From positions 3,922,001-3,986,000 of the forward strand of contig NZ_CP150203.1 of NCBI RefSeq assembly GCF_037969725.1: a DNA stretch of 64,000 nucleotides, written 5' to 3'. Shown here one piece after another: positions 6,908 through 10,069 of this stretch. The notes under the pieces were generated by a model that was not told where the DNA came from, did no database searches, and saw nothing but the letters and a program-made list of their open reading frames with translations. This stretch comes from Paenibacillus sp. FSL W8-0426 (GTDB taxonomy: Bacteria > Bacillota > Bacilli > Paenibacillales > Paenibacillaceae). The translations under genes and the position numbers were made by a program. How positions within the stretch are numbered: position 1 is the stretch's first letter; each line of letters starts with the position of its first letter.

Positions 6908-7219
6908 AGAAAGCAATGAAAATTCAAAGCATTATATATGAGAAAGGGTAGATATTAAAGAAAATGAATACCATTTTAGTCGTAGACGATGATCCGGAAA
7001 TTCGAGATGTGATCCATGTATACTTGCGCAATGAAGGATATGACGTCATTGAAGCAGCCGATGGCTTAGAAGCCGTGGACATGATCCAATCGAGTTCGGT
7101 CCAACTTGTTATTCTGGATGTCATGATGCCACGGATGGATGGGATCACGGCATGTATGAAAATCAGGGGAATTTCAAATACTCCAATCATCATGCTGTCT
7201 GCCAAGGAAGAGGATATCG

Positions 7220-7380
7220 TTGAACACTCCCACCACTTAGCCTTCGCTTGAAGTGGGGGATTCTTGGGTAATCGAACCTCTTGGTTCGAAGTGGACCAAG
7301 CGATCCCTGTGGTCCCCACAGTTCTTGTCGATATGATGATCTATATGGCAACATCCTTAATGTTTCGGGCTGCATTGACA
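7220..7380 (-). ncRNA. putative omega (right-end) RNA of TnpB copy 1
   Basis: In this family the guide RNA scaffold is transcribed from the tnpB 3' end through the right end of the element, and the guide is the adjacent host sequence. Here the segment after the tnpB stop holds two hairpin-forming parts: AACCTCTTGGTTCGA-like and CCCCCACTT...AAGTGG. It is well conserved in copy 2. The predicted guide begins CGATATCCTCTTCC on the minus strand and reads into the response regulator gene. Boundaries on the 5' side are approximate. Confidence 0.45.
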
Positions 7381-8429
7381 TCCCGATCATGGAGGGTCTG
7401 GCAGGATGGACACACCCATTCCCGTACCGAAAGATCTTTCACCTCTCGGTGTAGCGCTCCGCATACATGGCAGGTTTGACTTGTCGGAGCAAACGTATCC
7501 GCAATCTTGAGGGTGCGTCTGTACCATTCCGCTTTATACGTGAGCTGCCTTCTGAACTCACTCCAGGACGCATCGGCGATCGATTTGGCCAGCTTGTGAT
7601 TCTTGAGCATGTTAGACACCTTTAAGTCCTCGATACTGATCGTTTGGTTTTCACGAATCAGCTTGGTGGACAGCTTATGCAAAAAGTCATGGCGTATATT
7701 CGCCATTCTCTCGTGGATCAGGGCGACCTTCCGTTTGGCTTTTTGCCAGTTGGAACCGTCTTTCGTACGCCGGGCCAGCCTCCGCTGCCAGCTCGCCAAC
7801 TTCTTTTCATACCGGCTCCAGGCTTTCGGATGAGTATCCCGCATACCCTCGGATGATACCGCAAACGTTTGAAGTCCCAGATCGATCCCTACCGATTTTT
7901 CGTTACCCGGCAAGGGCTCCATCTCCACTTCACAGACGAGCGAGACAAAATACTTCCCCGCAGCATTTCGCCGTACCGTCGCCGAGAGAATGCGTCCTTC
8001 ACAGGGGCGGGAGTTTGCAAAACGCAGCCACCCCAGCTTGGGGAGCTTCAGCTTACTTCCATTCACAGCGATATTTCCATTCGTATATCGAGTAGTGTAA
8101 CTTTGCACCGGATGTTTACGGTTTTTGAAACGCGGAGCCTCCGTCTGCTTCTTGAAAAAACGATCAAAGCTATCGGCCACACGCCGAACAGCCGATTGTA
8201 GAGCAATACTATCCGTTTTTTTCAACCATGGATGTTCTTGCTTTAGAGCTGGAAGCTGCATGGCACAAGCATTGTACGACAAACCCTTGCCTGTGGCATC
8301 AAATGTATCCTTCCATTGTCCCAGAAAATGGTTGAATACAAAACGGCAACAGCCAAACATCTGATGGATCCACTGCTGCTGTGTACGATCGGGGTAGATC
8401 CGATACTTGTATGCTTTATGGAAGAGCAT
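7341..8429 (-). CDS. tnpB: TnpB RNA-guided nuclease, element copy 1
   Basis: The product is 362 residues starting MLFHKAYKYRIYP, with a GGAGG site six bases before the ATG. An N-terminal helix-turn-helix/OrfB region is followed by RuvC-like parts: GIDLGLQTF (catalytic Asp) near residue 190, ISIEDLKV (Glu) near 270 and HDRDVNAARN (second Asp) near 350. Between the last two is a C4 zinc finger, CHVCG...CPSC. All catalytic and zinc residues are present. TnpB proteins use an RNA made from the element's right end to cut DNA next to a short motif and help the element persist. It is about 93% identical to copy 2. Confidence 0.95.
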   Translation of the reverse strand: MLFHKAYKYRIYPDRTQQQWIHQMFGCCRFVFNHFLGQWKDTFDATGKGLSYNACAMQLPALKQEHPWLKKTDSIALQSAVRRVADSFDRFFKKQTEAPRFKNRKHPVQSYTTRYTNGNIAVNGSKLKLPKLGWLRFANSRPCEGRILSATVRRNAAGKYFVSLVCEVEMEPLPGNEKSVGIDLGLQTFAVSSEGMRDTHPKAWSRYEKKLASWQRRLARRTKDGSNWQKAKRKVALIHERMANIRHDFLHKLSTKLIRENQTISIEDLKVSNMLKNHKLAKSIADASWSEFRRQLTYKAEWYRRTLKIADTFAPTSQTCHVCGALHREVKDLSVREWVCPSCQTLHDRDVNAARNIKDVAI

Positions 8430-8959
8430 GCCATACACCTCCGTTCTTTGCAGTTATTATAGCACATATGTTCGGTTTCGAATACAAAAAGATGGCGATT
8501 CATCCCCCACCTAAAGCTGACGATTTTGAGGAGGGAGTCTTCTCGCCTTCAGCGATAAAATTATCGGTTTGACGACCGGAGCAGATGATTACATGGTCAA
8601 ACCATTTAATCCTTTGGAATTGATTGCACGCGTAAAAGCACAATTCCGTCGTCAATCCTTAATGGGCAAAGAAGAATTTAATTCGTTAATCCTCATCAAG
8701 GACCTGGCGATCGATAAGAATAAACATTCCGTTAAACTCAAAGGAAAAGAGATTTCGTTGACCCCTTTGGAGTTCGCCATTCTGCTGCTATTAGCGAGCC
8801 GGCCTGGTCAAGTTTTTAGCTCGGAGCAAATCTACGAAAGTGTATGGAAAGAGCCCTATGGGTATTCTGACAATACGGTTATGGTTCACATACGTAATTT
8901 AAGAGAGAAATTGGAGGAAACGCCAAGAGAACCTCAATACATTAAAACCGTATGGGGGG

Positions 8960-10069
8960 TTGGTTATAAAATTGATTAATTATGTTCGAAAGTTAAAACA
9001 AAACAAACGAATTCAAGTCAATATTCTCATTCGAATGATCCTAAGCCTCGTTATCTCACTTGGCATTAACTATGTTTTCCTTTTGACTTCGATTTATCTT
9101 GGTAACTCTATGGAATCTGATTGGTACTCTCGATTTTTTCCTTATCTGATTACCCCCTTGTTTATCGTTAGTTTCATCGGTGTTTTTCTATTTTTGACCC
9201 GGAACATTGTAAAAGACTTGATCAAACTAGAGCAAGGGCTTGAAAAAATCGCCGTGGGGAATTTAGGATATCGGGTAACGATTGACCGTCAAGACGAACT
9301 AGGTAATGTCGCTTTAAACATTAATAGAATGGCAGAGCGTTTAGAAGCACAAATTGCGAAGGAACGTGAGATTGAACAGTCAAAAATGGAAATGATTACA
9401 GGTCTCTCCCACGACTTGCGCACTCCTCTTACAAGTATCATTGGTTATATTCAGCTTCTAAAGACCGAATCTTTCCGAGATCAAGATGAGTATTCACGTT
9501 TTGTCCAAAATACGTACAACAAAGCCGTCCATTTGAGAAAACTCCTCGACGATTTGTTCGAATACACCCGGCTTACGTCTGTCGACGATACCCAATTGAA
9601 TCGGAAAGAAATCGATTTATCCCAACTTTTGGAGCAAATGTTATTTGAATTTGAGCCGCTTGCTCAAGAAAATGGGATTCGTATCGTCAAAGAGATTGCC
9701 CCCTCTCCGACGAATGTTTATGTGGACAGCGAAAAAATCGCCAGGGCAATCGACAACTTGTTGATGAATGCTTTGAAATACTCACACAAACCCGGTGCTA
9801 TCGAACTTCGAATGGAAAAATTCAGTACACACATCGCGATAGAGATCCAAAATAAAGGGACACCGCTTAATGAGGATCAAGTGAATAAGCTGTTTGACCG
9901 ATTTTATAAAGTAGACTTTTCAAGGAGCAGCGAAGGCATTCAGGCCGGCTCTGGGCTCGGTCTTTCCATTGCCAGGAATATCATGGAATTGCATCAAGGT
10001 AGTTTGACCCTGCATCATACCGATGATGTTTTTTTGTTTACAATGTTGCTGCCGCTATATCACTCCTGA
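8960..10069 (+). CDS. sensor histidine kinase
   Basis: The product has two membrane helices (about residues 22-45 and 62-82) around a short extracytoplasmic loop, then HAMP (about 85-135). HisKA has the H-box SHDLRTP near residue 152. HATPase_c has an N-box NLLMNALKYS near 270 and a G-box GSGLGLSIA near 334. The start is uncertain: the TTG at 8960 abuts a GGGGGG tract, and a TTG at 8972 is better spaced. Either overlaps the regulator stop at 8979. The short loop suggests sensing in the membrane, as in envelope-stress kinases. Its partner regulator is interrupted, so its phosphoryl target may be missing. Confidence 0.93.
   Translation: MVIKLINYVRKLKQNKRIQVNILIRMILSLVISLGINYVFLLTSIYLGNSMESDWYSRFFPYLITPLFIVSFIGVFLFLTRNIVKDLIKLEQGLEKIAVGNLGYRVTIDRQDELGNVALNINRMAERLEAQIAKEREIEQSKMEMITGLSHDLRTPLTSIIGYIQLLKTESFRDQDEYSRFVQNTYNKAVHLRKLLDDLFEYTRLTSVDDTQLNRKEIDLSQLLEQMLFEFEPLAQENGIRIVKEIAPSPTNVYVDSEKIARAIDNLLMNALKYSHKPGAIELRMEKFSTHIAIEIQNKGTPLNEDQVNKLFDRFYKVDFSRSSEGIQAGSGLGLSIARNIMELHQGSLTLHHTDDVFLFTMLLPLYHS

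What the first reader, a model, noticed from the sequence alone, without database searches (positions are those of the whole stretch)
6964..8979. Response regulator split by a TnpB element; exact joining restores a 226-codon gene
Codon 85 of an OmpR-type regulator (GATATC) is followed by 1,335 bases of element, after which GATAAAATT continues the same protein in frame. There is no target duplication and no missing codon. The upstream dedA and methyltransferase genes and the downstream kinase are intact. An insertion that leaves a perfectly restorable gene in an otherwise healthy operon could be recent, or could act as a reversible switch if TnpA is supplied in trans.
Basis: partly seen in the sequence, partly recalled or inferred. 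Interest (0 to 1): 0.75.

Follow-up and report, generated by a model that had tools for sequence, protein, structure and literature searches.

The report
Transposon-split regulator gene, one strain
A small mobile DNA element of a well-known type has recently landed inside a regulatory gene of a Paenibacillus strain; a sister strain has the uninterrupted gene, and nothing found in this genome could cut the element out again, so this looks like an ordinary knock-out rather than a switch.

Summary
A 1,335-bp tnpB-only IS200/IS605-family element (7220-8554) sits after base 256 of an OmpR/VanR-like response-regulator gene. Same-species strain JJ-223 carries the empty site, all 681 bases of the gene identical to the two flanks. 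'No duplication, no missing codon' is how this family inserts: TTTAT precedes the left end at 7 of 8 sites in the two strains and 7 of 7 sites of related elements examined elsewhere. The insertion is most likely recent and strain-specific.

The 'switch' reading is not supported. No Y1 TnpA was found in this genome (the same model finds an intact one in JJ-223), and by the published TnpB mechanism the element's own guide would target the excised allele. The operon is not 'otherwise healthy': compared with JJ-223, similarity stops eight codons into the gene after the kinase, and JJ-223's second methyltransferase, mprF and PAP2-like genes are missing there. The regulator is absent beside the kinase in 4 of 33 other distinct loci. 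I read it as an ordinary loss-of-function insertion. Side finding: element copies exchange sequence by gene conversion.

The parts
5779..6282 (+). dedA-like gene (VTT domain), upstream neighbour, open
6353..6907 (+). PmtA/OlsG-like SAM methyltransferase (below those models' cut-offs), upstream neighbour, open
6964..7219 (+). 5' part of the response-regulator gene (receiver domain up to base 256); the frame runs on into the element and stops at 7251 (95 aa)
7200..7219 (-). predicted 20-nt guide of the omega RNA, taken from (antisense to) the regulator gene
   Evidence: position next to the right end; guide function inferred from published TnpB work (passages)
7220..7369 (-). element right end (RE) and predicted omega RNA scaffold; terminal hairpin; end ...GTGTTCAA at 7220
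   Evidence: folds; consensus fold of 10 sequences, 7 of 36 pairs with compensatory change
7341..8438 (-). tnpB, 365 aa, RuvC-motif residues D186/E270/D353 and two Cys pairs present
8474..8554 (-). element left end (LE)
   Evidence: alignment of copies; DNA fold not better than shuffles (z -0.17)
8555..8559 (-). target/TAM motif TTTAT directly before the left end (reads ATAAA on + strand, inside codons 86-87 of the regulator)
8555..8979 (+). 3' part of the response-regulator gene (rest of receiver and DNA-binding domain)
8960..10069 (+). VanS-like sensor histidine kinase (below the VanS cut-off), open, downstream partner
10100..10123 (+). stretch matching the first 8 codons of the second methyltransferase gene that follows the kinase in JJ-223
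10124..11309 (.). stretch unrelated to the about 5.9 kb (second methyltransferase, mprF, PAP2-like) that JJ-223 has here
29231..30514 (+). another copy of the same element in the window, left end lost

Best explanation
This is a recent, probably strain-specific insertion of a tnpB-only (IS1341-group) IS200/IS605-family element into the gene of a VanR-like response regulator. SHOWN: the element's ends, the TTTAT motif, the exact junction, the empty site in a conspecific strain, eight copies in the genome, no Y1 transposase match in it, and absence from this place of the genes that follow the kinase in JJ-223. INFERRED: a Y1 TnpA acting in trans (since lost, or present only in a donor strain) pasted the single-stranded element 3' of TTTAT on the minus strand without duplicating the target. 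The regulator is now split and presumably inactive. TnpB with its omega RNA, guide taken from the regulator, would cut any element-free copy of the site and so favour keeping the insertion. The strain may tolerate this because the regulon has lost other parts; the order of events is unknown.
For: Empty site in JJ-223, 681/681 bases, a genome labelled same species. Protein is IS200_TnpB, 544.8 bits against a cut-off of 425. Copies at different sites share both ends and TTTAT (7 of 8 sites; 7 of 7 further sites). Conserved structured RE: 7 pairs with two-sided change against 1.1 on average in 500 shuffles, none of which reached 7. No PF01797 match in the genome, while the same model finds three matches (one intact gene and pieces of a broken one) in JJ-223. 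No intact second regulator. Genes after the kinase missing. Regulator absent beside the kinase in 4 of 33 other distinct loci. Donor-joint cleavage and insertion 3' of the TAM are published for ISDra2 (passages of PMC8612924).
Against: The nearest sister copy is only 95.7% identical, so no recent parent copy is seen in either genome and the donor is not identified. No TnpA with matching ends was found, so the machine that inserted it is inferred. TnpB activity, omega RNA expression and guide use were not tested. The left end does not fold better than shuffles. One of the 8 sites lacks TTTAT (L005). Strain-specificity rests on one other strain plus distant relatives; the protein search for the truncated form could not have been expected to show it. 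The nearest other species (L032/L063, L062, L033-L035) also lack a second methyltransferase right after the kinase, so that its absence here is a loss is likely, not proven.
Confidence: 0.9

Rival explanations
1. Reversible switch: the element is precisely excised in part of the population, turning the regulator back on.
For: Excision by this family is in principle precise, and the flanks are undamaged. A conspecific strain has an intact Y1 TnpA of another IS605-type element (L072) with a partly similar right end (49 bases at 80%).
Against: No Y1 TnpA match in this genome. The right end of the JJ-223 TnpA element, read by eye, ends in TTCAC, not TTCAA. The guide would target the restored allele (inferred). 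The genes that follow the kinase in JJ-223 are missing here.
Confidence: 0.04
2. Old insertion lost by precise excision in JJ-223, rather than gained in the window strain.
For: JJ-223 has an intact TnpA. Four other sites are shared by both strains, so insertions of this element predate the strain split.
Against: 29 of 33 other distinct kinase loci carry an uninterrupted regulator (JJ-223 is one of the 29), so the empty state is ancestral and one gain is simpler than a gain plus an exact loss. Both flanks show zero substitutions against JJ-223.
Confidence: 0.05
3. The element has been domesticated: TnpB or its guide RNA now regulates the operon (TldR-like).
For: The guide would be complementary to the regulator gene.
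Against: RuvC-motif residues are intact, unlike what I recall of nuclease-dead TldR proteins. The 16 bases of motif plus guide have no exact match in the genome. The insertion was seen in one strain only.
Confidence: 0.02
4. Assembly artefact.
For: The element is a multi-copy repeat.
Against: The copy is unique in sequence (at most 95.7% identical to any other of the 13 copies), and the genome is one contig.
Confidence: 0.01

Closest known systems
IS1341-group (tnpB-only) elements of the IS200/IS605 family; close DNA relative on Paenibacillus polymyxa plasmid pSC2 (83.7% over the whole length)
   Same: A single tnpB gene flanked by LE and RE; TTTAT motif and RE ending TTCAA also in pSC2; length within the 1252-1393 bp given for 10 of 18 IS1341 elements (PMC9956272 passages)
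   Different: Sits inside a chromosomal regulator gene; no Y1 TnpA match in its genome
ISDra2 TnpB of Deinococcus radiodurans (PDB 8h1j/8bf8; that these entries are ISDra2 is recalled)
   Same: TnpB homolog, 320-321 bits; insertion 3' of a 5-bp motif (PMC8612924 passages)
   Different: ISDra2 carries its own tnpA and its TAM is TTGAT; here tnpB only, and TTTAT
TnpB-driven spread of insertion sequences in plasmids (PMC11870625, outline and abstract read)
   Same: Guide taken from the insertion site, so element-free copies are the predicted target
   Different: Reported there for plasmids; here a chromosomal gene, untested

Membership tests
IS200/IS605 family element | TnpB of the IS200/IS605 type | tested here: met
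   NF038281 544.8 bits vs cut-off 425; IS607_TnpB 202.6 vs cut-off 350
IS200/IS605 family element | Inserts 3' of a short fixed motif, no target duplication | tested here: met
   TTTAT at 7 of 8 distinct sites with an LE in the two strains (exception L005) and at 9 of 9 further elements examined, 7 distinct sites; exact empty site
IS200/IS605 family element | Subterminal hairpins at both ends | tested here: inconclusive
   RE hairpin z -2.95, LE z -0.17 as DNA
IS200/IS605 family element | Mobilised by a Y1 (HUH) TnpA | not testable with these tools
   No Y1 TnpA match in this genome; trans action is inferred
IS1341 group | tnpB is the only gene, no tnpA remnant | tested here: met
   No TnpA similarity (E 1e-3) in the 13 copies with flanks by tblastn with two TnpA proteins; a short DNA remnant as in the 20-bp test of PMC9956272 was not sought
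RNA-guided TnpB nuclease | RuvC residues and zinc motif | tested here: met
   D186, E270, D353 and two CxxC motifs; the alignment printed is to an AI-designed nuclease (9yyg), where these motifs line up; equivalence to ISDra2 residues other than D191 is recalled
RNA-guided TnpB nuclease | Structured omega RNA at the RE with guide from the flank | tested here: inconclusive
   Conserved fold, 7 of 36 pairs with two-sided change, 0 of 500 shuffles reach it; expression not tested
IStron (group I intron with tnpB) | Group I intron in the element | tested here: not met
   No such Rfam match in 5000-10500; the two matches listed are far below their gathering scores
VanR vancomycin-resistance regulator | Passes the curated VanR cut-off | tested here: not met
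   Intact JJ-223 protein 291.3 bits vs cut-off 350

The most novel reading that the evidence does not exclude
A chromosomal, self-programmed spread of a knock-out. By landing in the regulator, TnpB acquired a guide against the intact regulator allele of other strains; when alleles meet (by DNA uptake or at the fork) the intact one would be cut and converted to the split one, so loss of the regulator would spread by homing rather than by selection.
Probability: 0.1. Interest if true: 0.55.

Novelty: new member of a known kind. Interest (0 to 1): 0.22.

Why it matters
It gives a clean filled/empty allele pair in one species for a tnpB-only element, useful for testing whether a TnpB guide programmed by a chromosomal gene maintains the insertion. 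It also cautions against reading perfect restorability as evidence for a switch: in this transposon family that is the default.

Tried and rejected
Considered that the unbroken identity around the insertion (about 758 bases, window 6956-7219 plus 8555-9048) marked a recent homing tract. Rejected: in about 105 kb compared with JJ-223 (104,687 bases covered, 1,653 differences, paralogous element alignments included) ten longer identical runs occur.

Looked for an autonomous tnpA partner with the same ends. 7 of 9 chosen element-bearing or end-bearing relatives have a Y1 match, several of them fragments, and JJ-223 has one intact gene. Among the loci of those matches only L129 (genome G018; right end 77% over 79 bases) and L072 (JJ-223; 80% over 49 bases) have right ends similar at E < 0.001; by eye both end in TTCAC. 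No partner was proven.

Looked for off-target sites of the guide. Motif plus 11 guide bases with up to 2 mismatches gave 16 places in the genome (control, pattern read backwards: 2), none exact; one of the 16 is the element's own right junction, the best has 1 mismatch and that in the motif, and eight keep TTTAT with 2 mismatches in the guide part. The full 20-nt guide was not searched.

Looked for carriage by phages: 0 of 14 matching records hold 80% of the element. Plasmids: 5 of 13 matching records do, best 83.7%.

Looked for the missing mprF protein elsewhere in the genome: nothing found, but that search warns that an empty answer without a control shows little; the same query does find the gene in JJ-223 by local tblastn.

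Literature. TnpB with TTTAT and transposon-adjacent motif gave 0 papers. TnpB with gene conversion (3 papers, all listed) and a disrupted response regulator with TnpB/IS605 terms (35 papers, 10 listed) were seen as listings only; no listed title described this case. Searches were also seen as listings, apart from PMC8612924 and PMC9956272 (passages) and PMC11870625 (outline and abstract). The library is partial.

Neither changes the odds given.

Full report
What is there. The window lies in a 6.9-Mb one-contig genome of a Paenibacillus; the nearest named record is Paenibacillus sp. JJ-223, labelled 'same species' when met again as G103 (its element places are those of G099). A response-regulator frame starts at 6964; after 256 bases it meets an element of 1,335 bases (7220-8554), and the frame resumes at 8555 and stops at 8979. 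The 5' part matches the receiver domain and the 3' part the OmpR-type DNA-binding domain. tnpB (365 aa) runs on the opposite strand, 7341-8438, and scores 544.8 bits against NCBIfam's IS200/IS605 TnpB model, cut-off 425. Three RuvC-motif acidic residues and two Cys pairs are present (ISDra2's D191 is named in the paper passages, its other two positions I recall only; the alignment printed is to an AI-designed relative).

Exact ends. Eight copies occur in the genome and five in JJ-223. Aligned with their flanks they place TTTAT directly before the LE at 11 of the 12 copies that keep an LE, i.e. 7 of 8 distinct sites, and RE = ...GTGTTCAA in all 13 (the exception is L005 with ACTTT; L008 has lost its LE; L007 and L069 read TTTAT|C once the split printed there is shifted by two). 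Nine more distant elements examined (L094-L098, L113, L126, L127, L128; 7 distinct sites, as L095/L128 and L097/L098 share theirs) also have TTTAT. Absence of target duplication is the rule for this family (recalled); the passages of PMC8612924 describe insertion 3' of the motif for ISDra2.

Empty site and age. JJ-223 has the uninterrupted 226-aa gene, identical in all 681 bases to the two flanks, while neighbouring genes differ: dedA 16/504, methyltransferase 9/555, kinase 11/1110. The identical stretch is not unusual for this strain pair (ten longer runs in about 105 kb), so it shows that the flanks have not decayed but not that a special tract was transferred. The kinase searches gave 34 loci besides the window's (L032-L065; 3 further matches had no locus and were not examined); L032 and L063 are the same place, leaving 33. 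Of these, 29, JJ-223 included, have a full-length regulator alignment and 4 do not (L056, L057, L062, L065). In the protein collection the truncated form has no listed relative above 78% identity; as the window's own truncated protein is not listed either, this says little. The intact form occurs as P0032 (3 contigs, one the length of JJ-223's contig), P0033 and P0034 (99-100%); whether these are independent strains is not shown. No second intact copy was found in the genome; the best full-length paralog is 55% identical.

Can it come out? The Y1 transposase model PF01797 finds nothing in this genome but 3 matches in JJ-223 (one intact gene, two pieces of a broken one) and 14 in the P. faecis genome, so the search works in this group. 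JJ-223's intact TnpA belongs to a tnpA+tnpB element whose RE, read by eye, ends in TTCAC, not TTCAA. Thus no machine for excision was found. In addition, the 20 nt next to the RE (7200-7219, minus strand) are what a TnpB guide would be; with TTTAT they match JJ-223's empty allele exactly, while the 16 bases searched have no exact match in this genome (16 places at up to 2 mismatches, 2 for the backward control). PMC8612924 (passages) shows TnpB cutting such donor joints and proposes repair from the sister copy. PMC11870625 (outline and abstract) reports a drive of this kind in plasmids. So, if TnpB is active here, the restored gene would be the target; this step is inferred.

The operon. In JJ-223 the order is dedA, methyltransferase, regulator, kinase, second methyltransferase, mprF (754.8 bits, cut-off 600), PAP2-like (my label; no NCBIfam match). 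In the window strain similarity to JJ-223 ends at 10123, within the first codons of the second methyltransferase (10100-10123), and resumes at 11309; the intervening 1.2 kb shows no similarity to the 5.9 kb of JJ-223. A second methyltransferase stands directly after the kinase in 21 of 33 distinct loci, JJ-223 included, but not in the nearest species (L032/L063, L062, L033-L035), so its loss here is likely rather than proven; the match to its first codons argues for loss. In P. faecis (L062) the methyltransferase is followed directly by the kinase with no regulator. Loss of the regulator therefore recurs, and 'otherwise healthy operon' does not hold.

RNA and ends. The last 150 bases of the element with the guide fold better than shuffles (z -2.73), and a 10-sequence alignment gives 36 pairs, 7 with compensatory changes; shuffles give 1.1 on average and none of 500 reaches 7, and structures slid by 1-3 columns give 0-2. 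That is as expected for a TnpB guide-RNA scaffold. The RE hairpin is strong as DNA (z -2.95); the LE is not (z -0.17). Rfam shows no group I intron.

History of the element. Four sites are shared by the two strains (flank matches). At L003/L070 the elements are 95.1% identical with flanks at 98.5 and 99.3%; at L004/L067 96.0% with flanks at 99.6 and 95.3%; at L006/L068 and L007/L069 98.7 and 98.8% with flanks at 98.8-99.7%. L067 is a clean mosaic: no difference from L005 before alignment column 920, and none from L004 after column 927. That is gene conversion between copies. A frameshift near column 920 is shared by L003, L006, L007, L066, L068 and L069 at four distinct sites, so a broken-tnpB form multiplied or spread by conversion. 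L001, the copy in the regulator, is at most 95.7% identical to any other of the 13 copies, so its donor is not among these.

Verdict. An ordinary, recent, probably strain-specific insertion of a tnpB-only IS200/IS605 element.

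Noticed in passing
window 10100-11309: Second methyltransferase, mprF and PAP2-like genes that follow the kinase in JJ-223 are missing here; an unrelated 1.2 kb stretch with an acetyltransferase-like ORF (weak, below-cut-off match) stands there.
   Followed up: partly
L067 (JJ-223) versus L004 and L005: Element at a shared site is a clean mosaic of two element variants, switching at alignment columns 920-927: gene conversion between dispersed tnpB copies.
   Followed up: partly
L003, L006, L007, L066, L068, L069: A shared frameshift in tnpB marks a broken sub-lineage present at four distinct sites in two strains.
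   Followed up: partly
L062 4404-6110 (Paenibacillus faecis): dedA, methyltransferase and kinase without the regulator between them: an independent loss of the same regulator.
   Followed up: partly
window 29231-30514: Second copy of the element in the window, with open tnpB but without its left end, so probably immobile.
   Followed up: partly
L098 1402-1648 and L097 1501-1799: Short elements with only the LE and RE of this family (about 250-300 bp), at what looks like the same site in two other species.
   Followed up: no
L126 2615-5225 (Paenibacillus polymyxa plasmid pSC2): A related element (83.7%) lies between two ORFs both annotated as DNA cytosine methyltransferase, perhaps another interrupted gene; not joined or tested.
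   Followed up: no
window 4988-5626: Short ORF with only weak, below-cut-off similarity to sensor kinases (VanS 23 bits) and no Pfam domain; same length in JJ-223.
   Followed up: no
window 13919-15115: A gene next to an ORF that looks sigma-factor-like by eye is very diverged between the two strains (247 differences in one 1-kb bin, most other bins under 35).
   Followed up: no
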